From NCBI RefSeq assembly GCF_000688295.1, contig NZ_JHZF01000013.1:1240001-1304000 (forward strand): DNA of 64,000 bases. The letters are read 5' to 3'. The notes below the pieces were generated by a model. That model made no database searches, had not been told where the DNA came from, and was given only the letters and a program-made list of their open reading frames with translations. Positions 28,055-55,113 of the stretch are shown in pieces (the stretch's first letter is position 1; every line of letters starts with the position of its first letter). This DNA comes from Pseudooceanicola nanhaiensis DSM 18065. Lineage in GTDB: Bacteria > Pseudomonadota > Alphaproteobacteria > Rhodobacterales > Rhodobacteraceae. The position numbers and the translations under genes are program-made.

Positions 28055-28179
28055 GCGCCCGCAAGGGGCATCGAGCCCCTCGCGGGCGCGGCCTGCGGCC
28101 CCTGCGCCCGGAAGGTCGAGGCCGGGGCCGGCGGTCAGGCCGGGATGCCTCCGGCGGGAGTATTTCCGGAAAGATGAAG
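28055..28179 (+). repeat. Dispersed structured repeat, copy A (hairpin with ATCGA loop plus tail)
   Basis: A 14-bp stem with one mismatch and an ATCGA loop (28055-28089) is followed after 57 bases by the conserved tail GCCTCCGGCGGGAGTATTT, CCGGAAAGATGAAG (28147-28179). The element lies between the pnp terminator and the convergent CDF gene. Matching tails occur at 32906-32939 (inverted), 35279-35313, 36811-36843 and 55081-55113. Confidence 0.8.
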
Positions 28180-28233
28180 CGGGACGCTCGTCCGGCAGCG
28201 GCGGCCGGGCTCCCGCCCGGCATGCGCTGCGGT

Positions 28234-29139
28234 TCAGGCCTCGGGGTCGGGGCCGACGGCGATGCCCTCGCCGGGTTTCGCCTTGTGCTCGGGCTCGACG
28301 TGGATCGTGACCCTGGCATCCTCGATCTCGTCCTGCAGCGCGCCCTCGATCCGGTCGCAGATCTCGTGCGCCTCGAAGACCGAGGTCTCGCCGGGGACCA
28401 CCAGGTGGAAGTCGATGAAGGTGGCCTTGCCGGCGTGGCGGGTGCGCAGGTCATGCGCCTCGACCGCGCCCCGGGCCTCGGCCGCGATCACGTCGCGCAC
28501 GACGGCGAGGGTGGAGTCGGAGACCGCCTCGTCCATCAGGCCGCTGAGCGAACTGCGGATCAGCAGGCCGCCGGACCACAGGATGTTGAGCGCCACGAGC
28601 GCCGCCATCAACGGGTCGAGGATCCACCAGCCGGTGGCCCAGGCCAGCGATATGCCCGCCGCGACCCCGGCCGAGGTCAGAACGTCCGCGTAGAGGTGCC
28701 GCCCGTCCGCCACCAGCGCGGGCGAGCGCTCGCGCCGCCCGGCGCGCAGCAGGACCTGGCACCAGACCGCATTGACCGCCGTGGCCCCGAGGGTGACGAG
28801 AAGCCCCCAGAGCGGGGCGTCGATCACCCGGGGGGTGCGGAGGGCCGACCAGGCCTCGTGCAGGATCAGCAGGGCGGCGGCGACGATCAGCAGGCCCTCG
28901 AGCACGGCGCTGAAGAACTCGGCCTTGTGGTGCCCGTAGGGGTGGTTGGCGTCGGCGGGCAGCGCGGCCACCCGGATCGCGATCAGCGCGGCGACGGCGG
29001 TCGCCACGTTGACGATGCTCTCGAGCGCATCGGAGAGCAGCGCGACCGAGCCCGTCAGCCACCAGGCCAGCGTCTTCAGCCCGAGGACGAGGAGGCCCAC
29101 GAGGATCGAGGCGACGGCGGTTCTGAGCGTGGACGACAT
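28234..29139 (-). CDS. Cation diffusion facilitator (CDF) family metal exporter
   Basis: A 301-residue CDF transporter with six membrane helices (about residues 8-205) and a C-terminal cytoplasmic domain (DLRTRHAGKATFIDFHLVVPGETSVFEAHEICDRIE). The intramembrane metal site appears as ALLSDALESIVNV in helix 2 and HLYADVLTSAG (H-x-x-x-D) in helix 5. The D-A-L-E-S variant is found in one large CDF subgroup that includes Zn, Fe and Mn exporters, so the metal is uncertain. A 23-base palindrome 71 bases upstream of the start (29210-29232) is a candidate metalloregulator site. Start ATG at 29139. Confidence 0.92.
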   Translation of the reverse strand: MSSTLRTAVASILVGLLVLGLKTLAWWLTGSVALLSDALESIVNVATAVAALIAIRVAALPADANHPYGHHKAEFFSAVLEGLLIVAAALLILHEAWSALRTPRVIDAPLWGLLVTLGATAVNAVWCQVLLRAGRRERSPALVADGRHLYADVLTSAGVAAGISLAWATGWWILDPLMAALVALNILWSGGLLIRSSLSGLMDEAVSDSTLAVVRDVIAAEARGAVEAHDLRTRHAGKATFIDFHLVVPGETSVFEAHEICDRIEGALQDEIEDARVTIHVEPEHKAKPGEGIAVGPDPEA

Positions 29140-29209
29140 GGGCCGTGCCTTTCGGGGGGAAGGGCAGCCCTGAATAGGCGGCGGGGCGGCGGAGCGCAAC
29201 CCACTGTGT

Positions 29210-29232
29210 TTGCTAGTGAAAATCACTCGCAA
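29210..29232. promoter_or_regulatory. Palindrome upstream of the CDF gene, candidate metalloregulator operator
   Basis: TTGC-T-AGTGA-AAA-TCACT-C-GCAA: nine of ten arm positions pair. It is AT-richer than the surroundings and placed where a promoter of the CDF gene should be. The layout is reminiscent of Fur-superfamily boxes, but I cannot assign a regulator. Confidence 0.45.
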
Positions 29233-29333
29233 ATGGGGGCGGCCCGCAACCGCGGGCGGGCAGCGGAGGCGCCTGGGATTGCAGGGCTTTCCGCCCGCGC
29301 TGCCCGTCCCGCGGTGCGGCGGAAGGTGTGCCG

Positions 29334-29648
29334 TCAGTCCCCGGCGGGCTGGGGCTCGGCTGCCTTTTCCGCCTCGGCCACGTCGGTGCAGCCGAGGAAC
29401 ATGCAGCCCTGGGCGCCGAGCGCCTCGCCCGCGGTGCAGGCCAGGCGCGCCTCGCGCGCGGCGGTGCGGATGGTCTCGCCCTCGGCGGCGTATCCGGCGC
29501 CGTTGGACTGGAACGGACCGACGTTGCCCTCGCTGTCCGACTGGCCCGGGATGCCGCCGGTGAAGGTGCAGGTGAAGGGGGTGGCCCCGGCGGTGGTGGC
29601 GCCGAGCAGGAGGATCGCCGTGGCGGCGACGCGGGACATGTGACGCAT
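29334..29648 (-). CDS. Small secreted cysteine-containing protein, unknown
   Basis: A 104-residue exported protein. The signal peptide is residues 1-22 (MRHMSRVAATAILLLGATTAGA). The mature part has five Cys (FTCTFTG, LACTAGE, QGCMFLGCTD), a Gly/Asn-rich start (GGIPGQSDSEGNVGPFQSNGAGY) and an acidic Ala-rich tail. The family is not known to me. The ATG at 29648 is preferred because AGGA lies seven bases upstream; the ATG nine bases further in is possible. It is followed by the CDF gene in the same direction. Confidence 0.6.
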   Translation of the reverse strand: MRHMSRVAATAILLLGATTAGATPFTCTFTGGIPGQSDSEGNVGPFQSNGAGYAAEGETIRTAAREARLACTAGEALGAQGCMFLGCTDVAEAEKAAEPQPAGD

Positions 29649-29851
29649 GGAGCTGTCCTGAGAAAACCGCGGCGCGTCCCGTCGCGCGGGGCCGCCGCGC
29701 GCCGAGTCGGTAGGCATCTCCTGACTCTGCGTCAAGATGGCCATGCCATTCGACATGTATGAGACAGGCGGGGCCGGTCCTCGGCCGCGCAACCGCCGGG
29801 TTGACGCGGGCGGCGGGGTGGCGATGCTGCGGAGAGGCGGAGGAGAGGCGC

Positions 29852-30544
29852 ATGTATCACGAGGGACAGATCAGCTATGAACCGGTGCCCCTGCCGGACC
29901 GTCGCGAGATGGACGACGCGGAGATGGCGGCGGCGGCGGAGGCCTTCCTGTCGCTGATGAAGGGCCGCCACAGCGTGCGGGACTTCGACACCCGCCCGGT
30001 GGCGCAGGAGGTGATCGCGCGCTGCGTCGAGACCGCGGGCCGGGCCCCCTCGGGCGCCAACCACCAGCCGTGGCATTTCGTGGCCATCGCCGATCCGGCG
30101 ATGAAGGCCGAGATCCGCGGGGCGGCCGAGTCCGAGGAGGAGAAGTTCTACGCGGGCGGGGCCGGGGACGCATGGCTCAAGGCGCTCGAACCGATCGGGA
30201 CGGGTGTCTCGAAGCCGCATCTCGAGGCTGCGCCGTGGCTGATCGTCGTCTTCGCGCAGCGCTACGGGGTGACGAAGGAGGGCACGCGGTACAAGAACTA
30301 CTACGTGCCGGAGAGCGTCGGGATCGCGACCGGGTTCCTGATCGCCGCGCTGCACAACGCGGGGCTGTCGGCGCTGACCCATACGCCGAACCCGATGCGG
30401 TTCCTGAACGGCCTCTGCGACCGGCCCGAGAGCGAGAAGCCGGTGATGATCCTCGCCGTCGGGCATCCGGCGGAGGGCGCGACGGTGCCGGCGGTGGCGA
30501 AGATCAAGAAGCCGCTGGAGGAGATCCTGACGGTGCGGGCATGA
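29852..30544 (+). CDS. Nitroreductase family flavoprotein (iodotyrosine deiodinase-like branch)
   Basis: A 230-residue FMN enzyme. FMN-contacting segments are SLMKGRHSVRDFDTRPV, GRAPSGANHQPWHFVAI and ESVGIATGFLIAALHNAGLSALTHTPNPM; the lid region is EEEKFYAGGAGDAWLKAL. This pattern is the IYD-like branch of the nitroreductase fold. It is not BluB: the sequence lacks the BluB layout even though a cobalamin region follows. The substrate is unknown. It is separated from fghA by 162 bases that hold a copy of the second repeat family. Confidence 0.88.
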   Translation: MYHEGQISYEPVPLPDRREMDDAEMAAAAEAFLSLMKGRHSVRDFDTRPVAQEVIARCVETAGRAPSGANHQPWHFVAIADPAMKAEIRGAAESEEEKFYAGGAGDAWLKALEPIGTGVSKPHLEAAPWLIVVFAQRYGVTKEGTRYKNYYVPESVGIATGFLIAALHNAGLSALTHTPNPMRFLNGLCDRPESEKPVMILAVGHPAEGATVPAVAKIKKPLEEILTVRA

Positions 30545-30580
30545 ATGATGGCCGGTCGCCTGTGCGACCGGCGGGGGGAA

Positions 30581-30656
30581 GGGGGGCGCTGCCCCCCTCT
30601 TGCGCGGCAGGCCGCGCAATTCACCCCCCGGGATATGAAACCAGAGGAAGATGGGG
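30581..30656 (+). repeat. Second repeat family, copy F
   Basis: GGGGGGCGCTGCCCCCC (hairpin), TC, then TTGCGCGGC-AG-GCCGCGCAA (9-bp stem), TTCACCCCCCGGGATAT and CCAGAGGAAGATG. The copy at 40646-40716 (inverted) has the same order, but the second stem is TTGCCCGC-AG-GCGGGCAA. The arms changed together. Confidence 0.85.
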
Positions 30657-30706
30657 CGTGGTGCGGGCGGGACCGTCGCGCGCGCGCCCCCGGAAAGGAA
30701 CGAGCG

Positions 30707-31537
30707 ATGAAGGTGATTTCGGAAAACCGGTGTTTCGGGGGCGTGCAGGGGGTCTATGCGCATGAGAGCGACGCGACCGCCTGCGAGATGACCTTCGGGC
30801 TCTTCCTGCCCGAGGAGGCGCGCGAGGGGCCGGTGCCTCTGCTGTGGTATCTCTCGGGGCTGACCTGCACCCACGAGAATGCCATGGTGAAGGCGGGCGC
30901 GCAGGGCTGGGCCGCGGAACAGGGGATCGCGCTGGTCTTTCCCGACACGTCGCCGCGCGGCGAGGGGGTGGCGGATCACGATGATTTCGACATGGGGCAG
31001 GGGGCCGGGTTCTACGTGAACGCGACCGAGGCCCCCTGGGCGCCGCATTTCCGGATGTGGGATTACGTGGCCGAGGATCTGCCCGACCTGCTCGCCCGCG
31101 ATTTCGCGCTCGACATGGAGCGGCAGGCGATCACCGGGCATTCGATGGGCGGACACGGGGCGCTGACGCTGGCGATGACCTATCCGGAGCGCTACCGCTC
31201 GGTCTCGGCCTTCGCGCCGATCTGCAACCCCACGCGCGGGGATTGGGGGCGAAAGCAGCTCTCGGCCTATCTCGGTGAGGATGAGGCGGCGTGGCGGGCG
31301 CATGACGCGAGCCTGCTGATGGCCGAGAAGGGCTTTGCCGGGCCGGTGCTGGTGGACCAGGGCGGGGACGACCAGTTCCTTGACCTGCTGAAGCCGGAGA
31401 CGCTGTTCGAGGCGGCGGCCAGGCGGCGGCAGGAGGGGAGCTTCCGGATCCAGAAGGGGTATGACCACAGCTATTTCTTCGTCTCCACCTTCATGGAGGA
31501 GCACCTGGGCTTCCATGCGGAGGCGCTCTACGCGTGA
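30707..31537 (+). CDS. fghA: S-formylglutathione hydrolase
   Basis: A 276-residue serine esterase that splits S-formylglutathione into formate and glutathione. The nucleophile is in [16 protein letters not shown] (G-x-S-x-G), the catalytic Asp in [12 protein letters not shown] and the His in [12 protein letters not shown]; the oxyanion region is [14 protein letters not shown]. It completes the glutathione-dependent formaldehyde route with FrmA (19053-20183), though the two genes are 10 kb apart. The start follows GGAAAGGAACGAGCG. Its stop overlaps the GTG start of yaiI (GTGA). Confidence 0.96.
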
Positions 31538-31989
31538 CGGTGCTCTACATCGACGCCGATGCCTGCCCGGTGAAGGAGGAGGCCGAGCGGGTCGCCACCC
31601 GCCACCGGGTGCGGATGCTGCTGGTCTCGAACGGCGGCATCCGGCCTTCGCGCAATCCGCTGGTGGAGATCGTCGTGGTGCCCGAGGGGCCCGATGCGGC
31701 GGACATGTGGATCGCGGAGCGGGCGGGCCCGGGAGACGTGGTGGTGACGCAGGACATCCCGCTCGCCGCGCGCTGCGTCGAGGGGGGCGCACGGGTGCTG
31801 AAGCCCAATGGCGAGGCGCTGGACGCGCGCAACGTCGGCCAGGCGCTGGCGGTCAGGGACCTGATGACCGACCTGCGGGCGGCGGACCCGTTCCGGCAGG
31901 GGGGCGGGAAGGCGTTCTCGAAGGCGGATCGGTCGCGGTTTCTCGATGCGCTGGAGCGCGAGGTCCGGGCGGGCCTGCGTCAGGGCTGA
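31534..31989 (+). CDS. YaiI/YqxD family protein (DUF188)
   Basis: A 151-residue protein with a PIN-like alpha/beta fold. Conserved parts are [18 protein letters not shown] (the DADACPVK mark of DUF188), [49 protein letters not shown] and [17 protein letters not shown]. It may be a nuclease-like protein; no activity is established. The GTG start overlaps the fghA stop by four bases, implying coupled translation. Its last 10 bases overlap the end of the convergent GFA gene. Confidence 0.9.
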
Positions 31990-32351
31990 TCCGGGTCGAG
32001 GGGCCAGGAGAGGCGCTCCTCGGTGTGGAAATTGCCTTCGATCTCGATCCGCGCCGGGTCGTCGAGGAGGGCCGCATGGAAATGCGTCTCTCCGGGCCAG
32101 CGGGTCGACCGGAAGGCGAGCTGCGATCCGCAGGTCGGGCAGAAGTGGCGGGTGACGCCGGGGCTCGAATGGTAGGTGGCGGGCGTCGCCCCGGTCCAGC
32201 GCCACGCCCCGTCCGCGACGCCTGCGAAGGTGGTCATCATCGAGGCCGTCGCCCGGCGGCAGCTCTCGTAATGGCAATGGCCGGTCCATTTCGGCGGAGC
32301 CGCGAAGGCGAAGCGGCAGGCGCCGCAGAGGCAATGCCCGGTGAGCGTCAT
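31980..32351 (-). CDS. GFA (glutathione-dependent formaldehyde-activating-like) family protein
   Basis: A 123-residue zinc protein. Zinc ligands are in [10 protein letters not shown] (C-x-C-x-x-C), [14 protein letters not shown] (C-x4-C) and [10 protein letters not shown] (C-x-x-C), the standard GFA/CENP-V layout. Founding members were reported to speed up S-hydroxymethylglutathione formation, a role since questioned. The position beside fghA is suggestive but it lies on the opposite strand. Its ATG overlaps the stop of the upstream GNAT gene (ATGA at 32348-32351). Confidence 0.9.
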
Positions 32352-32830
32352 GGCGCGGGCTCCGGCTGCGCCACGGTGCGGGTGAAGGTGACCGAGGTCG
32401 GCCGGTCGTAGCCCGCGTGTGCGGTCCGGCCGGTCTCGGCAAAGCCGAGCCGGGTGAAGGCGGCGTGGTTCTCGGTCAGCTCGACCCGGGTCTGCAGCAC
32501 CAGCGCGGGCAGACCGAGCGCACGGGCGCGGGCGTCGGCATGGGCGAGCATCAGCCGGGCGATGCCACGGCCGCGCTGGTCCTCGGCCACGGCGAGCTTG
32601 CCGAGGTAGAGATGCCCGGGCCTCGGCGTCAGCACCATGCAGGCCACGGGTGCGGGATCGAGGAGCGCCCAGAGCTCCTTCCTGCGGGCCTCCTCGGCGA
32701 AGGTCGAGGGCGTCATCCTGCGCAGCGAGGACGGCGGGTCGATCCGGTCCTCCATATAGGCGAAGGCCGTGCTCAGCAGGCGGTGGATGGCCTGCATGTC
32801 GTCGTCTGGGGTGAGGCGGACCGGCTGCAT
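32348..32830 (-). CDS. GNAT family N-acetyltransferase
   Basis: A 160-residue acetyltransferase. VACMVLTPRPGHLYLGKLAVAEDQRGRGIARLMLAHADARARALG contains the strand and the acetyl-CoA loop (Q-R-G-R-G-I-A). Then come LQTRVELTENHAAFTRLGFAETGRTAH and a C-terminal strand (PTSVTFTRTV). It is coupled to the GFA gene by an ATGA overlap. The start at 32830 is an ATG with only a weak GGGG upstream; the same frame continues open upstream but through a repeat element, so a longer product is unlikely. Substrate unknown. Confidence 0.82.
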   Translation of the reverse strand: MQPVRLTPDDDMQAIHRLLSTAFAYMEDRIDPPSSLRRMTPSTFAEEARRKELWALLDPAPVACMVLTPRPGHLYLGKLAVAEDQRGRGIARLMLAHADARARALGLPALVLQTRVELTENHAAFTRLGFAETGRTAHAGYDRPTSVTFTRTVAQPEPAP

Positions 32831-32905
32831 CCCCAAAGGTATAGCGGGAACCGCGGGCCGGGAAAGGGCTACAGGGAACGCGGCCCGCCTGCGAAGTGCC
32901 TTCCG

Positions 32906-32973
32906 CTTCCTCTTGCCGAAAATATCCCCGCCGGAGGCATCGCCCGGGGCGGGCTCGATGCCCGCCCCGGGCG
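32906..32973 (-). repeat. Dispersed structured repeat, copy B
   Basis: On the minus strand a 14-bp perfect stem with ATCGA loop (32941-32973) runs directly into GCCTCCGGCGGGGATATTT, TCGGCAAGAGGAAG (32939 down to 32906). The stem sequence differs from copy A while the ATCGA loop is the same. It lies between cobN and the GNAT gene. Confidence 0.8.
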
Positions 32974-33055
32974 ACCCCCGGGCGACGGGCAGCGCCCGGC
33001 GCACAGCGGGCGAGGCGGGCGCAGGACGTCGATGATCCGCCGGCCGGGGACCGGC

Positions 33056-36000
33056 TCAGATCAGCGCCGCGATCCGCGCCCTCGCGGAATTCGATCGCGG
33101 GATCCAGAGGGAGCGGTCGATGGCCTCCTGCAGCCGCTCGGCGATCTCGCGGAGGGCGGCGGGGTTATGCTCCGCGATGAAGCTGCGCGTGTCGACGTCC
33201 TCCAGGAAGGCCGCCTCGACGAGGTCGAAATGGTGGGTCTGCACCGCGCCCGTGGTGGCGGCGAAGGCGAAGAGGTAGTCGACCGTGGCGGCGATCTCGA
33301 AGGCGCCCTTGTAGCCGTGGCGCTTCACCCCGGCGATCCATTTCGGGTTCACCACGCGGGAGCGGACGACGCGGGAGATCTCCTCGTCGAGCGTCCGGAT
33401 GACCGGGCGTTCGGGGCGGGAATGGTCGTTGTGGTAGATCGGCACGTCGCGGTCCTGGAGCGTGTGGATCGCCGCCGCGGCGCCGCCTTCGAACTGGTAG
33501 TAATCGTCGGAATCGAGCAGGTCGTTCTCCCGGTTGTCCTGGTTCTGGACGATGGCCTCGGCCTGTTTCAGCCGCGTCTCGAAACCCGCGCGGTCCGGGA
33601 TGCCCTCTTCCTCGGCGGCATAGGCGTAGGACCCCCAGGTCAGGTAGGCTTCGCCAAGATCGGCCTTCTCCGCCCAGAGCCGTTCGTCGATCAGCGCCTG
33701 CAGCCCCGCGCCGTAGGCGCCGGGCTTTGCGCCGTAGACGCGGGCCGCGGGTTCGCCCGCCCGGGCGCGGGCGGCGGCGGGGTTCATGTCCTGCGGTTCG
33801 TCGAGGGCCTGCACGGCGCGGGCCGCGCGGTCGACGAGGGCGATGAGCTGGGGGAAGGCGTCGCGGAAGAAGCCCGAGATGCGGAGCGTGACGTCGACGC
33901 GGGGCCGGTCGAGGACCCCGAGGGGCAGGATCTCGAAACCGGTGACGCGGCGGTTGGCGCTGTCCCATTGCGGCTTCACGCCCATGAGCGCGAGGGCCTG
34001 CGCGATGTCGTCGCCCCCGGTGCGCATGTTGGCGGTGCCCCATGCGGTCAGCAGGAGCGCGCGCGGCCAGTCGCCATGGGTCTGGAGGTGTTTCTCGATC
34101 AGCAGGTTCGCGGATTTCCAGCCCAGCGTCCAGGCGGTCGGCGTCGGCACCGCGCGGCTGTCGACCGAGTAGAAGTTGCGCCCCGTCGGGAGGGTGTCCA
34201 GACGTCCCCGCGTGGGCGCGCCGGAGGGCGCCGGGGCGACGAAGTGCCCTGCAAGGGCGGTGAGGAGGCCCGCCCCCTCCGAGGGGCCGCAGGCGGCGAG
34301 GGTGGGGCGGATCCGCGTCTCGATGGTCTCGAGCACGGCGGTGCTCGCCGGTCCTTGCGCAGGCATGTCGCCCGCGATCAGCGCGGAGGCCAGGAGCTCC
34401 AGGCGCTCGACCGTATCGCCGTGGCTGCGCCAGGGCGAGGGGTCGATCCCGGCGAGGACCTCCGGGCGCGGCCCGGTCCAGCGGGCGGCCATGTCGCAGT
34501 CGAGCGGGTCGAAGGCAAGCGAAAGGTCGGCGGCGAGCGCGCGCGGGAGCGAGGCATCGGGGCCGGAGCCGTCCGCGCGCGGGATGCGGGTCAGGGCCTG
34601 CAGGAGGTCGCGTTCGAGGCGCTCCGTGGGAGACCGTCCGAAGACATGCAGGCCGTCGCGGATCTGGGCCTCCTTCAGCTCGCAGAGGAAGGCGTCGAGC
34701 TTCGCGAGGTCGGTCTCGGTGTCCTCGCCCGTCAGGCCTGCGTCCCGGTCCAGGCCGGTGGCGGCGGTGAGGCTCAGGATCTCCTTCCGGAGGTGCGTGA
34801 TGCGGCGCGGATCGACGCCGGCGGCCTCGTAATATTCGTCGACGAGGGCTTCGAGGTCGCGCATCGGCCCGTAGCTTTCCGCGCGGGTGAGCGGCGGGGT
34901 GAGGTGGTCGACGATCACCGCCTGCGCCCGGCGCTTTGCCTGCGTGCCCTCGCCGGGGTCGTTGACGATGAACGGATAGACATGGGGCATCGGCCCGAGC
35001 ACGGCCTCGGGCAGGCAGGTCCCGGACAGCGCCAGCGCCTTGCCGGGGAGCCATTCGAGGTTGCCGTGCTTGCCCATGTGCACGATCGCCTGCGCGCCGA
35101 AGACCTCGCGCAGCCAGATGTAGAAGGCGAGGTAGTTGTGCGGCGGGACGAGGTCCGGGGAATGGTAGGTCTCGGTCGGGTCGATGTTGTAGCCGCGCGC
35201 GGGCTGGAGGCCGACGACGACGTTGCCGTGGGTCAGGACGGAGAGCTTGAAGGCCGCTTCGGGCGCGTCCGGAGAGCGGCCCTCCGGGGGGAGTATTTCG
35301 GGAAAGATGAAGGGGTCGGCTTCGGGCTGGCCCCAGCGGTCGGTGATGCGTTGCTTCACCTCCCAGGGCAGGGCGTTGAAATGTGCGAGATAGGTCGAGA
35401 GGGGAAGGGCGACGCCGCCCTGCCTTTCCGCGCGGTCGGTGAGCCAGTTGGTGGGGCCTGCAAGGATCGCCTGCATCAGGGCGTCGCTGGTCTCGGGGGG
35501 GTTCTCGACGCTGTAGCCCTCGGCGGCGAGGAGGCGGAGGGCCTCCACCGTCGAGGCGGGGGTGTCGAGCCCGACGCCGTTGGCAAGGCGTCCGTCCTTG
35601 TTCGGGTAATTGGCGAGGACGAGGGCGATCCTGCGCTCCGCTGCGGGGGTGTGGCGCAGGCTGCACCAGCGGCGGGTCAGTTCGGCCACGAAGGTGATCC
35701 GGTCGCCGCGTGCGCGGTAGGTCGCGATCGGGCACTGGGTGGCGTCGTCGAAATAGGCCTCGTCCTTGAAGCTGATCGCGCGGGTGAGGACGCGGCCATC
35801 GACCTCCGGCAGGGCCACGTTCATCGCGATGTCGCGGGCGGAGAGGCCGGTGAGGCCCTGCTCCCAAGCCTCTTCCGCGCCGCCGGAGAGGACGATCTGG
35901 AAGACCGGCGCCCCGTTGGCGAAGGGGGCGGCGAGCGGGTTCTCGGCGCCGTCGCCATGGGGGGAGCCGGTGGCGAAGGCGGTGGCGTTGAGGATCGCGG

Positions 36001-36775: not shown

Positions 36776-36810
36776 CGGGTCGGGCCTTGGCGCTTGCGGA
36801 GGGTTCGGGA

Positions 36811-36843
36811 GCCTCCGGCGGGAGTATTTCGGGAAAGATGAAG
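36811..36843 (+). repeat. Dispersed repeat tail, copy D, upstream of cobN
   Basis: TTCGGGA followed by GCCTCCGGCGGGAGTATTT and CGGGAAAGATGAAG. It lies 36 bases upstream of the cobN start, in the GNAT-cobN spacer, in the opposite orientation to cobN. Copy E (55081-55113) shares the same upstream TTCGGGA. The rest of the spacer to 36990 shows nothing else I can name. Confidence 0.88.
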
Positions 36844-40337: not shown

Positions 40338-40382
40338 GTTCTCACTCCTTGCCGTCATCCCCGACGGCGTTTGGGTTTCCAT

Positions 40383-40574
40383 CATACGGCCGGTCTCCTG
40401 GCTTGTGGGTCCCTGCGTGCCTTCGCCTTCCCGGTTTCCCAGTGGCCATCGAAGGCCCGCTCGCCACGTCACAGTCGCGGGGGCGGCTGCGGCTGCGGGC
40501 CCCTGGATGGGTCACCCGTTCCGCATTCCCGATTATCCCCGGGCGCTCCTGCGCCCTTCACGGGGAACCGTATG
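40383..40574 (-). ncRNA. Cobalamin (B12) riboswitch controlling cbtBA
   Basis: Reading the minus strand from 40574: closing arm CATACGG, then ATCGGGAATGCGG and GGGTGACCC, the B12 box GCCGCCCCCGCGACTGTGAC, then CCACTGGGAAACCGGGAAGGC, AGCCAGGAGACCGG and the pairing arm CCGTATG (40389-40383). All the conserved blocks of the class are present in order, 46 bases upstream of cbtB. It should shut down cobalt import when adenosylcobalamin is plentiful. Confidence 0.96.
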
Positions 40575-40645
40575 TACCGTTCATGCGAAATTCCCCGGGG
40601 TCACGTCAAGGTGAAACGGCGGGCGCGCGTCCGCCCTGCGCCCTG

Positions 40646-47657: not shown

Positions 47658-47659
47658 GA

Positions 47660-48159: not shown

Positions 48160-48174
48160 TTAACCGTTTGTTAG
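48160..48174 (+). promoter_or_regulatory. CtrA-like box upstream of the response regulator gene
   Basis: TTAA-N7-TTAG, one change from the CtrA consensus TTAA-N7-TTAA, 72 bases before the receiver gene. The surrounding stretch is AT-richer. Single match only. Confidence 0.3.
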
Positions 48175-48245
48175 GAACTCGCTCGGACCGTGTTCATCAT
48201 TCAGGCTTCCTCTAGCCTGTCGCGGCCCTTTCGCGCAACGAGGCA

Positions 48246-48650: not shown

Positions 48651-48720
48651 GGCCGCGTTTCCGGCATTGCGGCGCGGGGGGGGCGGGCTAGGCTGAGGCC
48701 GCGCAGCGGGGGGAATCGCC

Positions 48721-49407
48721 ATGCTCACGCCATTCGGTCCCGGTCTCAGGACCGCCGACGGCCCCGAGGTCGAGGTCTTCGGCTTCCGCTACCCGACACG
48801 CATGGCGCTGATCCGCCTCTCGGACGGCAGGCTGATGGCATGGTCCCCCGTGCGCCTGACCCCCGGCCTGCGCGACGCGGTGGAGGCCTTCGGTCCGCTG
48901 GCCCGGATCGTCGCGCCGAACGCGCTGCACCACCTGAGCCTCGGCGACTGGCAGGCCGCCTTTCCGGCCGCGCGTCTTCTCGCCCCGCCGGGGCTTGCGG
49001 CCAAACGGGGCGACCTGCGGATCGACGCGCAACTGGGGGAGGCGCCCGATCCGGCCTGGGCGGGCGAGGTCGATCAGGTCATGATCCGCACCCGGATCAC
49101 GGACGAGGTTGTCTTCTTCCACCGGGAAAGCGCGACGGCGATCGTCACCGACCTGATCCAGCGCGTGCCGGCCGAGACTCTGTCGGGCTGGCGCGCCGTG
49201 GTGGCGCGGCTCGACCGGATGAGCGGGCCCGAGCCGCAGGTGCCGCGCAAGTTCCGGATGGCGATGACGGACCGCAACGCGGCGCGCGCGGCCGTGGGGC
49301 GCATCCTCGACTGGCCGACGCAGCGCCTGCTGATCGCTCACGGCGCCCCGGTCGCGGTCGGCGGCGGGGCTGCATTGCGCTCCGCCTTCGGCTGGCTGAC
49401 CGGCTAG
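48721..49407 (+). CDS. DUF4336 domain protein (metallo-beta-lactamase-like fold)
   Basis: A 228-residue protein. LTPFGPGLRTADGPEVEVFGFRYPTRMALIRLSDGRLMAWSPVRLTPGLRDAV, then RIVAPNALHHLSLGDWQAAFPAARLLAPPGLAAKR. This is the DUF4336 pattern, distantly related to metallo-beta-lactamase folds with the N-x-x-H-H replacing the metal His cluster. A late LLIAHGAPVAVGGGAALRSAFGWL completes it. Function unknown. It is convergent with the glutathionyl-hydroquinone reductase gene, one base apart. Confidence 0.88.
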   Translation: MLTPFGPGLRTADGPEVEVFGFRYPTRMALIRLSDGRLMAWSPVRLTPGLRDAVEAFGPLARIVAPNALHHLSLGDWQAAFPAARLLAPPGLAAKRGDLRIDAQLGEAPDPAWAGEVDQVMIRTRITDEVVFFHRESATAIVTDLIQRVPAETLSGWRAVVARLDRMSGPEPQVPRKFRMAMTDRNAARAAVGRILDWPTQRLLIAHGAPVAVGGGAALRSAFGWLTG

Positions 49408-49408
49408 C

Positions 49409-50383
49409 TCAGCCGCGCCCGTGCGGCGCGGTCAGGTCGAGATCCGGCGTGATCGGGATGATCCGGTGCGGATTCACGGTCTCGTGGCTGTAATGGTAGT
49501 GCCGCACGATGTGGTCGAAATGCACCGTCTCCGCGACGCCCGGCCATTGGTAGAGCTCGCGCAGGTAGGGCCAGATGTTCGGGTAATCGACGATCCGGCG
49601 CAGGTTGCACTTGAAGTGCCCGTGATAGACCTTGTCGAAGCGGATCAGCGTGGTGAAGAGCCGCCAGTCGGCCTCGGTGATCGCGTCGCCCAGCAGGTAG
49701 CGGTTTTCGGACAGGATGCCCTCGATCCAGTCGAGGCTGTCGAAGAGCGGGCGGACGGCCTTGTCATAGGCCTCCTGCGTGGTCGCGAAACCCGCCTTGT
49801 AGACGCCGTTGTTCACGGTGTCGTAGATGCGCGCGTTGATCGACTCGATGGGCTCGCGCAGGGCCTCGGGCCAGTAATCGTCGGTGTTGCCGGTGATGCC
49901 GTCGAAGGCGGAATTGAGCATCCGGATGATCTCGGCGCTCTCGTTCGAGACGATCACCTCGCGCGCCTTGTCCCAGAGGACGGGCACGGTGACGCGGCTC
50001 GTCACCTCGGGCTCGGATTTCTGGTAGATCTCGCGCAGGAAATCGAAGCCGAAGAGCTTGTCGCCGGTGGCGCCGGGGAAATCGGTGCGGAACTCCCAGC
50101 CGTCCTTCAGCATGTCGGGATGCACGACCGAGACGTCGATATGCGCGCCCAGGTCCTTCAGCTGGCGGAAGATCAGCGCGCGATGCGCCCAGGGGCAGGC
50201 GTAGGAGACATACAGGTGGTAGCGGCCGCTTTCAGCCTCGAACCCGCCCTCGCCCGAGGGGCCGGGGCTGCCGTCTGCGGTGATCCAGTTGCGGAAACTC
50301 GATTCCTTGCGCTCGAACGCGCCGCCTTCGGAAAGCGCCTCGAGGCTCTCCTCGTGCCATTTACCGTCTATCAGCTGGCCCAT
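49409..50383 (-). CDS. Glutathionyl-hydroquinone reductase (YqjG/ECM4 type)
   Basis: A 324-residue Xi-class glutathione transferase. The catalytic Cys lies in YVSYACPWAHRALIFRQL (C-P-W-A motif), and the C-terminal helical domain contains LLGDAITEADWRLFTTLIRFDKVYHGHFKCNLRRI, both typical. The enzyme reduces glutathionyl-hydroquinones, clearing quinone adducts. NWITADGSPGPSGEGGF is the usual N-terminal loop. The start at 50383 is ATG after GGAGGATGAC. Single gene with a long upstream spacer shared with the cbiX operon. Confidence 0.95.
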   Translation of the reverse strand: MGQLIDGKWHEESLEALSEGGAFERKESSFRNWITADGSPGPSGEGGFEAESGRYHLYVSYACPWAHRALIFRQLKDLGAHIDVSVVHPDMLKDGWEFRTDFPGATGDKLFGFDFLREIYQKSEPEVTSRVTVPVLWDKAREVIVSNESAEIIRMLNSAFDGITGNTDDYWPEALREPIESINARIYDTVNNGVYKAGFATTQEAYDKAVRPLFDSLDWIEGILSENRYLLGDAITEADWRLFTTLIRFDKVYHGHFKCNLRRIVDYPNIWPYLRELYQWPGVAETVHFDHIVRHYHYSHETVNPHRIIPITPDLDLTAPHGRG

Positions 50384-50694
50384 GTCATCCTCCGTCGTGC
50401 TTCGGGTTCCACATAGACCATGGGACGCCGGTGCCTACGGGCAGGAGCGCGCAGGGGTTTTGCGCCCGCGCACAGGCGGCGCCGGAACCAGGGCGCGGAA
50501 TGCCGCGAAGGGCGATTGCGGCGGGCGGGGGCCATCCCTATAGAGGGGGCAGACGATGCCGCCGGGGCAAGCCCGGGGGCCGGAAAGGAGCAGGCCCTCC
50601 GCGCCGACCCGCACAGGGGGCGCCGGGCCGGATCGTCATGGCCCCGCGGCGGGGCGTCATCCCCTTTCCGTGGCTGAGACGAAAGAGGGACTTC
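50384..50694. other. Divergent spacer between the reductase gene and the cbiX operon
   Basis: 311 bases, very GC-rich, with a possible TATAGA box near 50539 and hairpins (for example GCCCC-GCGGC-GGGGC near 50641-50655) in what would be the leader of the plus-strand operon. I looked for the conserved blocks of a B12 riboswitch (GCCCCCGC-ACTGT, GGGAAGGC) on both strands and did not find them. Nothing else is recognised. Confidence 0.4.
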
Positions 50695-50928
50695 ATGCGC
50701 CATCTCCTACGCATCACCACGGTGATTTCCGCAGGCACCGCCCCCGTGGCCGCCCTGGCCCACCCGGGCCACCTGACCGAGGTCGCGGGCCACGGCCACT
50801 GGCTGGGCGCCGCCGCGATCGGCGCGGCCATCGCCATCGGCCTCTGGCAGGCGCTGAAGGGCCGCAGGAACGCCGCCCGTGACGATGACGCGGCGGAGAG
50901 CGCCGAAGCCGAGCCGCAGGACGCCTGA
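50695..50928 (+). CDS. Small membrane protein, DUF6732-like
   Basis: A 77-residue protein: signal-like N-terminus (MRHLLRITTVISAGTAPVAALA), then HPGHLTEVAGHGHWLGAAAIGAAIAIGLWQALKG, a His-rich start of one helix, then a charged tail (RRNAARDDDAAESAEAE). The A-H-P-G-H start is shared with metal-related HupE/UreJ proteins, and the pattern H-P-G-H-x5-A-G-H-G-H-W fits the family I remember as DUF6732. It lies three bases before cbiX and so probably handles cobalt; that is context inference. ATG at 50695 follows AGAGGGACTTC. Confidence 0.7.
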   Translation: MRHLLRITTVISAGTAPVAALAHPGHLTEVAGHGHWLGAAAIGAAIAIGLWQALKGRRNAARDDDAAESAEAEPQDA

Positions 50929-50931
50929 GCC

Positions 50932-52188
50932 ATGACGAAAATCGGAGTGATGATCTGCGGCCACGGCTCCCGGAGCCAGGCCGCGGTGGATGAATTCGCC
51001 GTGCTGGCCGAGAAGCTGCCGCCCCTGCTGCCGCCCGAATGGGAGGTCGATTACGGCTATCTCGAATTTGCCAACCCGGTGATCCGGGCGGGCCTCGACC
51101 GGCTGCGCGACAAGGGCTGCGAGCGGATCCTCGCGGTGCCGGGGATGCTCTTTGCCGCGATGCACGCGAAGAACGACATCCCAACGGTGCTGAACACCTA
51201 TGCCGCCGAGCACGGGATCGAGGTCAGCTATGGCCGCGAGCTGGGCGTGGACCCGAAGATGGTCGCCGCCGCGGGCGCCCGGATCCGCGCGGCGGTGGCC
51301 GAGGCGGACGCGCGGAGCGGGCCGGTGCCGCTGGAGGAGACCTGCCTCGTCGTCATCGGCCGCGGCGCCTCGGACCCCGATGCCAACGGCAACGTCGCCA
51401 AGATCGCGCGGCTGCTGCACGAGGGGCTGGGCTTCGGCTGGTGCGAGGTCGGCTATTCCGGCGTCACCTTCCCGCTGGTCGAACCCTGCCTCGAACACGC
51501 GGTGAAACTGGGCTACCGGCGGATCGTCGTCTTCCCCTATTTCCTCTTCACCGGCATCCTGATCGACCGCATCTACGGCTTCACCGACCGGGTGGCCGCG
51601 GCCCATCCCGGCATCGAGTTCGTGAAGGCGGGCTATCTCAACGATCATCCCAAGGTGCTCGAGACCTTCGCCGAGCGGGTCCGCGAACAGATGGGCGCCA
51701 TCGCGCCCCCGAACTGCGGCACCTGCCTGTTCCGGGAACAGATCCTCTCGACCGGCGAGACCGGGCACACCCATGTCACGCCCGCGGAACGCCGGGCGCT
51801 GGCCGAGGCGCGCGACAAGGGCCATCCGGCCCTCGGACCCGTTCCGCCGCAGACCTGCGTGATGTGCAAGTACCGGGTCGAGGTCCTGGGCTTCGAGGCC
51901 GAGCTCGGCGCCCCGCAGGAGAGCCATCACCACCATGTCGAGGGGCAGGGCGCCTCGGCACCGGGTTCCAACGTGGCCGATTGCACGCTCTGCGACACCT
52001 TCTGCACCGGCGCCTGCCGTCTGGAGATGCCGTGGCATCACCATCACCACGGGCACGGCCACGACCACGGCCACGGAGACGGCCACGGGCATCACCACCA
52101 CCATCACGGTCATGACCACGACCACGCGCATGCGGAATACCCGCATGCGAAGCATCCCCACGGGCCGGAAAGCGCCCGGCCGAAATGA
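50932..52188 (+). CDS. cbiX: Sirohydrochlorin cobaltochelatase CbiX, long form with His-rich tail
   Basis: A 418-residue class II chelatase. Two similar halves: VMICGHGSRSQAAVDEFAVLAEKL with the active-site His (GHGSR) and VVIGRGASDPDANGNVAKIARLL in the second; LEFANPVIRAGLDRL and VFPYFLFTGILIDRI are the typical chelatase core. C-terminal to about residue 270 lie Cys motifs (NCGTCLFREQ, QTCVMCKYRV, DCTLCDTFCTGACR) and a very long His-rich tail (about residues 365-415). CbiX inserts cobalt into sirohydrochlorin in the early-insertion (anaerobic) route. The Cys groups may bind a 4Fe-4S cluster as reported for some long CbiX proteins. Stop overlaps the next start (ATGA). Confidence 0.93.
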   Translation: MTKIGVMICGHGSRSQAAVDEFAVLAEKLPPLLPPEWEVDYGYLEFANPVIRAGLDRLRDKGCERILAVPGMLFAAMHAKNDIPTVLNTYAAEHGIEVSYGRELGVDPKMVAAAGARIRAAVAEADARSGPVPLEETCLVVIGRGASDPDANGNVAKIARLLHEGLGFGWCEVGYSGVTFPLVEPCLEHAVKLGYRRIVVFPYFLFTGILIDRIYGFTDRVAAAHPGIEFVKAGYLNDHPKVLETFAERVREQMGAIAPPNCGTCLFREQILSTGETGHTHVTPAERRALAEARDKGHPALGPVPPQTCVMCKYRVEVLGFEAELGAPQESHHHHVEGQGASAPGSNVADCTLCDTFCTGACRLEMPWHHHHHGHGHDHGHGDGHGHHHHHHGHDHDHAHAEYPHAKHPHGPESARPK

Positions 52189-53771
52189 CGCCGCTCTTCG
52201 ACACGCATCTCGTCGTCGACTGGTCCGCGCGCAATGCGCCCAGTCCGGCCCGGCCGACGATGGATGCCATCTGGATCGGGATCGTCCGCGACGGGGTGGC
52301 GGAGGATCCGGTCTATTGCCGGACCCGGCACGCGGCGGTCGCATGGCTCTCGGAGTTTCTGGCCGGCGAGGTCGCGCAGAACCGGCGGGTGCTGGCCGGC
52401 TTCGATTTCCCCTTCGGCTATCCCCGGGGCGTCGCCCGCAGGATCTGCGGTTCCGACGCGGCGCTCGATCTCTGGGACTGGTTCGCGGGGCAGGTCGTCG
52501 ACGGTCCGGACAACGTGTCGAACCGGTTCGAGGTGGCGGGACGGATCAACGACCTCTACGCGGGCACCGGACCTTTCTGGGGACGGCCCGAGACCGCACC
52601 GGTGCCGTCGATCCCGATCAGGGCCAATGCGCGCGAGGGCGGCGATCATCCGCCCGAACGCCGGATCGCCGACGCGCGGGCGAAGGGGGCCAAGACCGTC
52701 TGGCAACTCGCCTATTCCGGCTCGGTCGGCTCGCAGGTCATTCTCGGCCTGCCGGCGCTGGCCGCGCTCCGCTCCGATCCCCGGCTGGCCGGGCACGTGG
52801 CCGTCTGGCCCTTCGAGACCGGCCTCGCCGTGCCCGAGGCCCGGATCGTGCTCGCCGAGGTCTATCCCTCCCTGCTGCAGGCCCAGGCCCATGCGGCCGG
52901 GGACGAGGTGCTGGACCGGGCGCAGGTGCGGGTCACCGCCTCGGCGCTAGCGGGGCTGGACCGGTCGGGTGGGCTCGGCGCCCTGTTCGAGGCGACGGCC
53001 GACCTGAGCGCCGAGGAGCGCGAGACCGTGGCGCGGGAGGAGGCGTGGATCCTCGGCCTCGGCCACGAGACGGCGCTTGTGTCCGCCGCAGGGGGCGAGA
53101 GCCCCCCGGCGCAGCCCCGGCCGTATCTCCGCACCATGCGCTACGAGAAGGACCCGGCGGCGATCTACGCGCAGAGCTTTGCCACCGTCCGCGGCGAGGC
53201 CCGGCTGGAGCGGTTCGACGAGGGCATGGCCCGGATGGCGGTGCGGCTGATCCATGCCTGCGGCATGGTCGAGATCGCGGACCGGCTCGCGTATTCGCCG
53301 CTCGCCTTCGACGCGGGACGGGTGGCGCTCTTGAACGGCGCCCCGGTGATCTGCGATTGCGAGATGGCGGGCGCCGGGGTGATCCGGCGCTACCTGCCCG
53401 CGGACAACGAGGTGATCGTGACGCTGAACGATCCGCGGGTGCCCGCGATCGCCGCCGGGATCGGCAACACGCGATCGGCGGCGGCGACGGAGCTCTGGGT
53501 CGACCGGCTCGAAGGCGCGGTGGTGGCGATCGGGAATGCGCCGACGGCGCTCTTCCACCTGCTGGAGCTGCTGGACCAGGGCGCGCCGAAACCGGCGGTG
53601 ATCCTGGGTTTCCCGGTGGGCTTCGTGGGCGCGGCGGAGAGCAAGGCGGAACTGGCCGCCAACCCGCGGGGCTGCGATTTCGTGGCGTTGCGCGGGCGGC
53701 GGGGCGGCTCGGCCATGGCCTCGGCCGCGGTGAATGCGCTGGCGGCGGGGCTGCCGGAAGAGAAGGTCTGA
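52185..53771 (+). CDS. cobH: Fusion protein: DUF429-like N-terminal domain and precorrin-8X methylmutase (CobH)
   Basis: A 528-residue fusion. From residue about 313 onward it is precorrin-8X methylmutase (YLRTMRYEKDPAAIYAQSFATVRGEARL, active-site His in VRLIHACGMVEIADRLAYSP, then NGAPVICDCEMAGAGV and ILGFPVGFVGAAESKAEL), which shifts the C11 methyl to C12 and forms hydrogenobyrinic acid. Residues 1-300 (LFDTHLVVDWSARNAPSPARPTMDAIWIGIV, RVLAGFDFPFGYPRG) look like a DUF429-type RNase H-like domain with unknown role. CobH alone is about 210 residues. Start overlaps the cbiX stop (ATGA). Confidence 0.92.
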   Translation: MTPLFDTHLVVDWSARNAPSPARPTMDAIWIGIVRDGVAEDPVYCRTRHAAVAWLSEFLAGEVAQNRRVLAGFDFPFGYPRGVARRICGSDAALDLWDWFAGQVVDGPDNVSNRFEVAGRINDLYAGTGPFWGRPETAPVPSIPIRANAREGGDHPPERRIADARAKGAKTVWQLAYSGSVGSQVILGLPALAALRSDPRLAGHVAVWPFETGLAVPEARIVLAEVYPSLLQAQAHAAGDEVLDRAQVRVTASALAGLDRSGGLGALFEATADLSAEERETVAREEAWILGLGHETALVSAAGGESPPAQPRPYLRTMRYEKDPAAIYAQSFATVRGEARLERFDEGMARMAVRLIHACGMVEIADRLAYSPLAFDAGRVALLNGAPVICDCEMAGAGVIRRYLPADNEVIVTLNDPRVPAIAAGIGNTRSAAATELWVDRLEGAVVAIGNAPTALFHLLELLDQGAPKPAVILGFPVGFVGAAESKAELAANPRGCDFVALRGRRGGSAMASAAVNALAAGLPEEKV

Positions 53772-53817
53772 GAGGCGGGCGCGTCGCGCCGTCTCGCGTG
53801 GAACGGAGTACAGGGTG

Positions 53818-55020
53818 ATGGCGGACGCGTGGCTGCATATCGTGGGGATCGGCGAAGAGGGGATGGACGGCCTCATGCCCGCCACCCGCGCCGTGATCGA
53901 GGCGGCCGAGATCATCGTCGGCGGCGACCGGCATCATGCGCTGTCCGACAGCGTGACGGCCGAGCGGGTTGCCTGGCCGCATCCCTTCGATGCGCTGATC
54001 GACGTGCTGAAGGGCTATCGCGGGCGGCGTGTCGTGGTGCTGGCCACGGGCGACCCGCTCTGGTTCTCGGTGGGGGCGCGGATCGGGCGGGCGCTGCCTG
54101 CGGGCGAGATCGTGTTCCACCCGCAGCTCTCGGCGTTCCAGCTGGCGTCCGTCCGGATGGGCTGGTCGATGGCGGATCTCGAGACGCTGACGGTCCATGG
54201 CCGGCCGGTGGAGCAGATGATCGCCTTCATCCAGCCCGATGCGCGGCTGCTGATCCTGACGACGGGCTCCGAGACGCCGGGCCAGATCGCCCGGTTCCTG
54301 ACGGAGCGGGGGTTCGGCGCCTCGCCCATGACCGTGCTCGCCAACATGGGCGGGAAACAGGAGAGCCGCTTCGACGGGGTGGCGGAGAGCTGGGACCACG
54401 CGGTGCCCGCCTTCAACACGCTGGCGGTCGAGTGCCGGGCGGCGCCGGATGCCGCGCTGCTGCCGCGGGTGCCGGGGCTGGCGGACGAGCTCTTCCAGCA
54501 TGACGGCACGATGACCAAGCGCGAGGTCCGCGCGGCGACGCTGGCGAAGCTCATGCCGATGCGCGGCGCGCTGCTCTGGGACATCGGGACCGGCTGCGGC
54601 TCGGTCGCCGTGGAGTGGATGCGGGCGGCGCGCTATGCCCGCGCCGTGGGGATCGAGCCCCGGGCCGACCGGCGGGCGATGGCGGCGGCGAATGCGCTGG
54701 CGCTCGGCGCGCCCCGGCTCGAGATCGTCGACGGGGTGGTCCCGGCGGCGCTGGAGGGGCTCGAGGCGCCGGACGCGGTCTTCATCGGCGGCGGGCTCTC
54801 GCGCGAGGTCTTCGTGGCGGCCTGGGAGGCGCTCCGGCCGCTCGGGCGGCTCGTGGCCAACGCGGTGACGCTGGAGAGCGAGGCGGTGCTGGCGGAACTC
54901 CACGCGGAATTCGGCGGCGAGCTGGTGCGCATCGCCGTGCAGCGGGCGGAGCCGGTCGGCTCCTATCGCGGCTGGCGGGCCTCCATGCCCGTGACGCAAT
55001 GGTCGCTGGTGAAGCGGTGA
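53818..55020 (+). CDS. cobL: Precorrin-6Y C5,15-methyltransferase (CobL = CbiE + CbiT)
   Basis: A 400-residue bifunctional enzyme. Residues 1-200 are the CbiE-type uroporphyrin methylase domain (LHIVGIGEEGMDGLMPATRAVIEAAEIIVGG, VVLATGDPLWFSVGARIGR), residues 210-400 the CbiT-type domain (HDGTMTKREVRAATLAKLMPMRGALLWDIGTGCGSVAVEWMR and DAVFIGGGLSREVFVAAWEALRPLGRLVANAVTLESE). It methylates C5 and C15 and decarboxylates the acetate on ring C. The start is ATG at 53818, with a GTG directly before it. 46 bases follow the cobH stop. Confidence 0.96.
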   Translation: MADAWLHIVGIGEEGMDGLMPATRAVIEAAEIIVGGDRHHALSDSVTAERVAWPHPFDALIDVLKGYRGRRVVVLATGDPLWFSVGARIGRALPAGEIVFHPQLSAFQLASVRMGWSMADLETLTVHGRPVEQMIAFIQPDARLLILTTGSETPGQIARFLTERGFGASPMTVLANMGGKQESRFDGVAESWDHAVPAFNTLAVECRAAPDAALLPRVPGLADELFQHDGTMTKREVRAATLAKLMPMRGALLWDIGTGCGSVAVEWMRAARYARAVGIEPRADRRAMAAANALALGAPRLEIVDGVVPAALEGLEAPDAVFIGGGLSREVFVAAWEALRPLGRLVANAVTLESEAVLAELHAEFGGELVRIAVQRAEPVGSYRGWRASMPVTQWSLVKR

Positions 55021-55080
55021 GCGGCTTCGTGGACGCGGTGCGCGCCTGGCCCGGCCGCGGGGGAGGTGGCGCGTTCGGGA

Positions 55081-55113
55081 GCCTCCGGCGGGAGTATTTC
55101 CGGAAAGATGAAG
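55081..55113 (+). repeat. Dispersed repeat tail, copy E, between cobL and cobI
   Basis: TTCGGGA then GCCTCCGGCGGGAGTATTT and CCGGAAAGATGAAG. It lies 60 bases past the cobL stop inside the operon, in the same direction as the genes. Confidence 0.88.

What the first reader, a model, noticed from the sequence alone, without database searches (positions are those of the whole stretch)
28055..55113. Dispersed repeat with conserved tail and compensating hairpin stems (copies A-E)
A 33-base tail (GCCTCCGGCGGGAGTATTT, then C/CGGGAAAGATGAAG) occurs at 28147, 32906 (inverted), 35279, 36811 and 55081. In copies A and B the tail is preceded by a 14-bp hairpin with the same ATCGA loop but different, still fully paired arms. 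Coordinated change of both arms with a fixed loop implies selection on folded nucleic acid. Copies D and E share a further TTCGGGA at the 5' end. Four copies lie in spacers, one in a gene.
Basis: seen in the sequence. Interest (0 to 1): 0.72.

Follow-up and report, generated by a model that had tools for sequence, protein, structure and literature searches.

The report
Gene-end palindromic repeats with dialect tails
The bacterium carries about a hundred copies of a short DNA signal, a hairpin-forming stretch plus an almost unvarying tail, mostly placed just behind genes; a related species keeps the signal at many of the same places, but its copies there are written in another 'dialect', as if something in the cell reads it.

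Summary
The tail occurs 107-109 times in the genome (reversed-pattern control 0); of 102 copies analysed, 100 lie in spacers, 93 of them beside a gene 3' end. The hairpin of A and B recurs 22 times with a fixed apex and differing but complementary 11-bp arms: 96.4% of 330 cells paired, 76 double changes against 18.2 in shuffles. Tails fall into two linked dialects; two inner bases vary. Other Rhodobacteraceae sampled have other dialects. At 30 of 94 own loci the relative G103 has a copy in the same spacer, its tails differing almost only at dialect positions and the free bases. Outside the family only stray hits appear.

This is a REP-like family, but not a GTAG/RAYT REP: no GTAG tag, no Y1 transposase in any of 20 genus genomes. 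No G-U pairs, weak orientation bias and some flips favour DNA-level over RNA-level recognition, weakly. My preferred reading is a gene-end site read by an unidentified, co-evolving factor (inferred). New variant of a known kind; no function shown experimentally.

The parts
28027..28047 (+). Copy A, first hairpin module (GCGCCG-N-CGTCGC type)
   Evidence: Read; similar modules precede most of the class-I hairpins printed
28055..28089 (+). Copy A, class-I hairpin: 15-pair helix with apex GGGC-ATCGA-GCCC, one A-C mismatch
28147..28179 (+). Copy A tail, dialect T1 (nn = CC)
32906..32938 (-). Copy B tail, dialect T2 (nn = TC)
32940..32974 (-). Copy B class-I hairpin, 15 of 15 pairs
32982..33002 (-). 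Copy B, first hairpin module (GCGCCGGGCGCTGCCCGTCGC)
   Evidence: Read
35280..35312 (+). Copy C tail, dialect T1, inside cobN and antisense to it; a tail-like stretch sits at the same cobN place in 10 of 12 genus relatives with a close CobN
36804..36843 (+). Copy D: TTCGGGA plus T1 tail, between the cobN start and the gene upstream, antisense to both
55074..55113 (+). Copy E: TTCGGGA plus T1 tail, between two codirectional tetrapyrrole-methylase genes (53815-55020 and 55178-55912); G103 has a copy in the same spacer
   Evidence: L022/L351
27996..28026 (+). Ordinary intrinsic terminator of pnp (hairpin 27996-28017 plus T-rich stretch); it lies before copy A, so A is not pnp's terminator
   Evidence: Read; similar hairpin-plus-T stretches are visible behind pnp in many of the relatives printed

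Best explanation
SHOWN: copies A-E belong to a family of extragenic palindromic elements found, in the samples searched, only in Rhodobacteraceae. The unit is one or more hairpin modules followed by a tail of about 21 fixed positions interrupted by two free bases (RRTATTTnnGNNNAGANGAAG across the genomes seen). In the window's genome the tail exists in two discrete dialects and is almost invariant. Copies sit in spacers at gene ends, in either orientation, with an excess between convergent genes. Many sites are old: the same spacer carries a copy in a related species, where the tail is in that species' dialect. INFERRED: the tail is the recognition site of a trans-acting, sequence-specific factor (probably two specificities per genome) that acts on DNA (double strand, or a strand folded at the palindrome), and the palindrome next to it is part of the site. 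Factor and sites co-evolve, which makes the dialects. The likely effect is that of a gene-end boundary, as has been proposed for REP elements: stopping or absorbing what runs out of the neighbouring gene (read-through, supercoiling, 3'-end decay). The factor has not been identified.
For: Number and sharpness: 107-109 copies, reversed-pattern control 0; of 102 typed copies 41 T1, 60 T2, 1 neither; the dialect bases are completely linked across the nn spacer (41 of 41, 60 of 60) while nn varies; 94 of 102 fit a dialect exactly at every other position after the first G. Palindrome: all 11 varying pairs have double changes; covariation score 0.651 v 0.129 shuffled, 0.07-0.13 slid; near-perfect hairpin before 70 of 100 own tails, 1 of 100 in shuffles, 15 of 100 behind the tail. 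Selection in place rather than copying: 30 of 94 own loci have a G103 copy in the same spacer, 24 of them with flanks matched on both sides. There 32 of 35 own tails and 32 of 35 G103 tails fit their own genome's dialects exactly; own tails are 2.09 mismatches from G103's two main dialects, G103 tails 2.0 from the own ones. In L025/L175, L010/L187 and L140/L182 neighbouring sequence is alike and the tail differs at dialect bases, plus nn in two of the three. T1 sites are D1 in G103 in 9 of 9 single-copy pairs typed D1 or D2, T2 sites D2 in 8 of 13 (p = 0.006). Dialects in further genomes: (partial lists). Gene ends: 91 unique spacers 51 codirectional / 33 convergent / 7 divergent, against 26 / 3 / 11 for 40 window spacers without a copy (Fisher p = 0.0005 convergent, 0.005 divergent); 26 of 60 tails facing an antisense gene end lie within 20 nt of it, 3 of 41 lie that close to a sense gene start. 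Annotated plasmids: 13 of 14 fetched regions have annotated genes, none overlapping the tail. DNA level: 0 G-U of 330 cells; G-T 11 v A-C 14 in near-perfect hairpins of 369 copies; no clear orientation preference; opposite orientation in 6 of 23 single-copy shared spacers.
Against: No factor is known and none was found; the dialect argument is circumstantial. G103 also has a minor third dialect one mismatch from own T1; counting it, own tails at shared sites are 1.69 instead of 2.09 mismatches from G103's dialects. The first mismatch count, on minimum-energy folds of all 369 copies, gave G-T 45 v A-C 30 (p = 0.11), which leans the RNA way if anything; a third count on own copies gave 2 v 3. 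Orientation is reversed in 5 of 8 T2-D2 single-copy pairs, which looks like turnover rather than plain inheritance. 11 of 41 BLAST pairs turned out not to be the same spacer, and the 64 other own loci have no demonstrated counterpart (only 90 of about 121 G103 copies were fetched). Four genus genomes (G102, G108, G109, G115) have at most 2 hits, so the element is dispensable. Hairpin-tail adjacency is not strict (copy A), and 20 of 41 T1 tails had no hairpin of a class I had named. The tails were found with patterns, so decayed copies are undercounted.
Confidence: 0.42

Rival explanations
1. A REP/REPIN-like non-autonomous mobile element: a single-strand transposase of a family other than Y1 recognises the folded hairpin and the tail and copies the element into gene ends; dialects are successive waves.
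For: Copy number, gene-end location, single units and inverted pairs (e.g. L002, L006, L015, L037, L053), more than one subfamily per genome, patchy presence in the genus, orientation differences at some shared spacers, and no tail (pattern <=2 mismatches) behind pnp in 29 of 29 loci of other genera.
Against: No PF01797 hit in any of 20 genus genomes although 5 of 14 control genomes ring; no transposase-like cluster among the 14 largest groups of similar genes out of 581 called around own and G103 copies (groups judged by eye); copies do not carry arms, flanks or nn with them; old sites carry each species' own dialect, which transposition to new sites does not explain.
Confidence: 0.25
2. An RNA element: the 3' UTR hairpin (and tail) terminates transcription or protects the upstream mRNA from 3'-to-5' decay, the tail being bound or cut by an RNA-binding protein or RNase E.
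For: Gene-end location and convergent excess; near-perfect hairpins; RRTATTT fits the RNase E consensus RN-WUU (recalled); G-T 45 v A-C 30 in the cruder count.
Against: 0 G-U of 330 cells and 12 mismatches without one G-T; codirectional contexts 33 sense v 24 antisense (p = 0.29); copies between codirectional genes of apparent operons such as cob (this window) and rfbB-rfbD; pnp already has its own terminator before copy A; the T-stretch is only TATTTnn.
Confidence: 0.2
3. A DNA-uptake or recombination signal spread by molecular drive, like DUS/USS: sequence-biased uptake converts sites in place, giving dialects.
For: In-place dialects, and gene-end, inverted-pair location as described for DUS (PMC3630211, passages); no need for copying flanks.
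Against: Only about one copy per 43 kb (4.66 Mb / 109), far fewer than I recall for DUS/USS; tail about twice as long as a DUS (recalled); two dialects in one genome. No uptake receptor was sought.
Confidence: 0.06
4. Neutral multi-copy sequence homogenised by gene conversion, with arms kept complementary by template-switch correction; no function.
For: Both processes exist (recalled); covariation need not mean selection.
Against: Gene conversion over about 22 bases that does not carry nn or the flanks is hard to imagine; 94 of 102 tails exact; gene-end bias.
Confidence: 0.07

Closest known systems
GTAG-tagged REP elements / REPINs with RAYT (TnpA-REP)
   Same: About 100 dispersed extragenic palindromes, gene ends, single units and inverted pairs, subfamilies per genome
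   Different: No GTAG tag beside the hairpin; no Y1 transposase in the genus sample; about 21-position tail instead of a tetranucleotide; free arms; old sites carry the dialect of each species
CGTC-tagged REPs (Di Nocera et al. 2013, PMC3733652; abstract, passages and first part of the discussion seen)
   Same: Extragenic palindromes mainly of alphaproteobacteria without dedicated transposase, 4-5 base loop, some units inside genes. The paper says CGTC families occur in species of all alphaproteobacterial orders, so Rhodobacterales must be among them
   Different: No CGTC tag next to the stem, 15-pair stem instead of 8-9, no CCA end, long dialect tail. Rhodobacter, Paracoccus, Roseobacter, Ruegeria, Jannaschia, Dinoroseobacter and Rhodobacterales have 0 occurrences in the main text, but its Figure 2, which lists the species, is not held
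DNA uptake sequence dialects of Neisseriaceae (PMC3630211, passages)
   Same: Species dialects at many sites; inverted pairs associated with terminators
   Different: Length, copy number (recalled), palindrome with free arms, two dialects in one genome; uptake untested here
Intrinsic terminators
   Same: Hairpin followed by a few T at gene ends
   Different: No clear orientation preference, weak T-stretch, conserved sequence beyond the T-stretch, present between codirectional genes of apparent operons

Membership tests
REP (GTAG) with RAYT | High-copy short palindromes in spacers | tested here: met
REP (GTAG) with RAYT | Conserved GTAG tetranucleotide beside the hairpin | tested here: not met
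   Not in the tail consensus of the typed copies nor as a common feature of the adjoining sequences printed (read by eye)
REP (GTAG) with RAYT | Y1 (RAYT) transposase in the genome | tested here: not met
   PF01797: none in the own genome and in 0 of 20 genus genomes; controls positive in 5 of 14
REP (GTAG) with RAYT | Mobility of the unit | tested here: inconclusive
   Shared sites found, other sites without demonstrated counterpart; no clean empty site analysed
CGTC REPs | CGTC tag, 8-9 bp stem, 4-5 base loop, CCA end | tested here: not met
   Class I has a 5-base loop but a 15-pair stem and no CGTC directly beside it and no CCA end; definition. Other hairpin classes were not tested against it
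CGTC REPs | No dedicated transposase | tested here: met
   as far as Y1 and the flanking genes go
Intrinsic terminator | Oriented with the upstream gene | tested here: not met
   33 sense v 24 antisense in codirectional contexts, p = 0.29
Intrinsic terminator | Ends RNA in vivo | not testable with these tools
   No RNA data held
DNA uptake sequence | Uptake receptor and uptake bias | not tested
   -
Known Rfam family | Covariance model match | tested here: not met
   At gathering score only a cobalamin riboswitch in the window; no search below gathering score was made

The most novel reading that the evidence does not exclude
A family-wide, transposase-independent site-recognition system: two paralogous (or two-specificity) DNA-binding factors per genome read about 100 gene-end sites made of a palindrome plus a 21-position tail, and factor and sites change together, producing species dialects in place, of a kind I otherwise know only from DNA-uptake sequences.
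Probability: 0.3. Interest if true: 0.85.

Novelty: new variant of a known kind. Interest (0 to 1): 0.6.

Why it matters
If it is a transposase-less REP family, it is a clean case for the open question of why such elements persist: here old sites stay and carry each species' own version.

Tried and rejected
Rejected: 'A is the terminator of pnp' (pnp has its own terminator before A; none of 29 loci from other genera has the tail behind pnp within 1500 bases at <=2 mismatches, though a diverged dialect would be missed). 'RAYT-type REP'. 'Phage-borne' (one stretch in viral contigs, with one strict pattern). 'Alphaproteobacteria-wide' (3 of 380 genomes outside the family, one 1-mismatch hit each; one hit in the reversed control too). 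'Strand-specific RNA' (not supported, not excluded). 'Element next to its own transposase gene': of 581 genes called around own and G103 copies, the 14 largest groups of similar genes shown looked like ordinary paralogues, judged by eye from their first sequences.

One search had measured own tails against two of three G103 dialects only; one search gives both. The conclusion got slightly stronger; I left the odds as they were.

Led nowhere: full-text searches for the sequence or for Rhodobacter(aceae) palindromic repeats showed, in the listings seen, no description of this element; that covers only the open-access library and these terms. The CobN protein alignment printed is void (loci were not all on one strand); one search replaced it. 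rests on noisy minimum-energy folds of GC-rich DNA; one search uses near-perfect hairpins. Hairpin classes come from hand-written patterns and leave 29 of 102 copies unclassed. L058, a lone GGGCATCGAGCCC without complementary arms, was dropped before (22 of 23 kept). Not all copies were fetched: the listing shows 100 of 109.
Full report
Observation. Expected by chance: 0.03 for the 19-mer with up to 3 mismatches. B is a second variant of the tail; C has two mismatches in the 19-mer. Gene context from Pfam (nine proteins) and a codon-usage gene caller written here: A lies behind pnp and its ordinary terminator, facing the end of a cation-efflux gene; B behind cobN; C inside cobN, antisense; D in front of cobN, antisense; E between two tetrapyrrole-methylase genes.

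Genome-wide. 58 copies of the 18-mer with <=2 mismatches, 109 of GGGRRTATTTNNGGNNAGANGAAG with <=2, 107 of GRRTATTTNNGNNNAGANGAWG with <=1; the reversed pattern gives 0 in each. From 94 fetched loci I took 105 hits, dropped three with 3 mismatches and typed 102: 41 T1, 60 T2, 1 neither. The dialect bases (AG, A, T in T1; GA, C, G in T2) occur in 41 of 41 and 60 of 60. The nn bases are mixed (CC 41, TC 21, AT 10, others). 94 of 102 fit a dialect exactly at all other positions after the first G. So the tail is fixed on both sides of a free dinucleotide. Caveat: copies were found by pattern, but the dialect positions were degenerate in it.

Hairpins. GGGCATCGAGCCC occurs 23 times; 22 have an 11-bp arm of free sequence on each side: 16 stand directly before a CCTCCGGCGGG tail at constant spacing, 1 before a tail with another linker, 4 before a GGGGGGCTGTCTGCCCCCC module, 1 is copy A. 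15 pairs, 330 cells: 96.4% paired; 11 pairs with double changes; 76 double-change cells v 18.2 shuffled and 16-21 in slid controls; no one-sided (G-U) change. The 12 unpaired cells are C-C 5, A-C 4, T-C 2, C-T 1. Other modules stand before the same tail: GGGGG-CGCTG/CTGTCTG/CCAG-CCCCC with a second free-arm hairpin, GCGAT..ATCGC, GATTTCG..CGAAG. A near-perfect hairpin (score >= 8) precedes 70 of 100 own tails, 31 of 94 G103 tails and 46 of 175 others; shuffles 1, 5 and 6; behind the tail 15 of 100, 8 of 94, 9 of 173. So hairpins are strongest in the window's genome and not universal.

Position. Of the 102 copies 100 are intergenic: convergent 36, sense-codirectional 33, antisense-codirectional 24, divergent 7; two lie inside called genes. 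Unique spacers 51/33/7 (codirectional/convergent/divergent) v 26/3/11 for the 40 window spacers of at least 40 bases without a copy. 26 of 60 tails facing an antisense gene end are within 20 nt of it. Independent annotation: of 433 plasmid records matched (mostly weak Salmonella matches) I fetched 14 Rhodobacterales regions; one had no annotation, in the other 13 no annotated gene overlaps the tail, and 10 have neighbours annotated on both sides. Several are the same locus in sister strains or species (UDP-glucose dehydrogenase / ParB-domain gene in four Leisingera records, rfbB-rfbD in two, a gcvH end in two), so they are fewer than 13 independent cases; the plasmid gene table is incomplete.

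Distribution. 42 of 100 Rhodobacteraceae genomes, one per genus and own included, with a strict pattern; 18 of 20 genus genomes with the core, from 0 to 121 copies, four of them with at most 2; 3 of 380 class genomes outside the family, one hit each at 1 mismatch. Viral contigs: 1 with a strict pattern.

Dialects and old sites. G103: AATATTTnnGGCAAGATGAAG (D1) and GATATTTnnGACCAGAGGAAG (D2), plus a few AGTATTTnnGGAAAG tails (D3) (100 of 121 listed). G110: GGCCAGATGANN and GACAGGATGAAG; G116: GACGAGATGAAG and GACAAGGTGAAG; further ones. BLAST of 94 own loci against 90 of about 121 G103 loci gave 41 best hits. Projecting tails through the aligned flanks, 30 of 94 own loci have a G103 copy in the same spacer, 24 with both flanks or a spanning alignment, 6 with one flank; 11 BLAST pairs are other spacers. 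At the shared sites 35 own tails are 0.14 mismatches from own dialects, 2.09 from D1/D2 and 1.69 if D3 is counted; 35 G103 tails (22 D1, 12 D2, 1 D3) are 0.09 from their own three dialects and 2.0 from the own genome's. Single-copy pairs: T1-D1 9, T1-D2 0, T2-D1 5, T2-D2 8 (p = 0.006), T1-D3 1; orientation kept in 17, reversed in 6 of 23: T1-D1 8 of 9 kept, T2-D1 5 of 5, T2-D2 3 of 8. Copy C's place in cobN carries a tail-like stretch in 10 of 12 relatives with a close CobN, copy D's spacer in 6 of 12 at up to 3 mismatches; G109, nearly without elements, lacks both. In cobN the coding sequence itself may help to preserve C.

What it is. The unit resembles REP elements in copy number, place and inverted pairs, but the two tagged super-families described for REPs do not fit (membership table), and no Y1 transposase was found in 20 genus genomes. 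Free nn, free arms and free flanks mean the tail is not kept by recent copying; old sites that carry each species' own dialect mean the whole set answers to something common. I therefore prefer a trans-acting reader with co-evolving sites. DNA rather than RNA is favoured by the missing G-U pairs, the weak orientation bias and the orientation flips; each is modest evidence, and one cruder count leaned the other way. A mobile REP-like element with an unknown transposase is the main rival.

Limits. Papers: PMC3733652 (abstract, passages, first part of the discussion), PMC8266576, PMC3630211, PMC7866481 (passages), PMC6006769 (term look-up, no occurrence), PMC12306157 (abstract, outline, one passage), PMC8049555 (abstract, outline).

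Noticed in passing
window 40371-40587 (-): Cobalamin riboswitch (RF00174, 98.9 bits), fitting the cob gene neighbourhood
   Followed up: no
window 35280-35312: A tail-like stretch is retained at the same place inside cobN, antisense, in 10 of 12 genus relatives with a close CobN, so the protein seems to carry an element-encoded stretch
   Followed up: partly
L412 and L417 (plasmids of Tritonibacter mobilis and Ruegeria sp. TM1040): The tail fills about half of the 65-base rfbB-rfbD spacer inside an rfb gene cluster in two species
   Followed up: no
L420 (Pontibrevibacter nitratireducens plasmid): A tail lies in the spacer between a DNA polymerase Y family gene and an error-prone DNA polymerase gene
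   Followed up: no
L037, L053, L006, L002, L015: Composite units: two tails pointing outward around hairpins between genes, with at least one tail 9-16 nt from a called stop codon
   Followed up: partly
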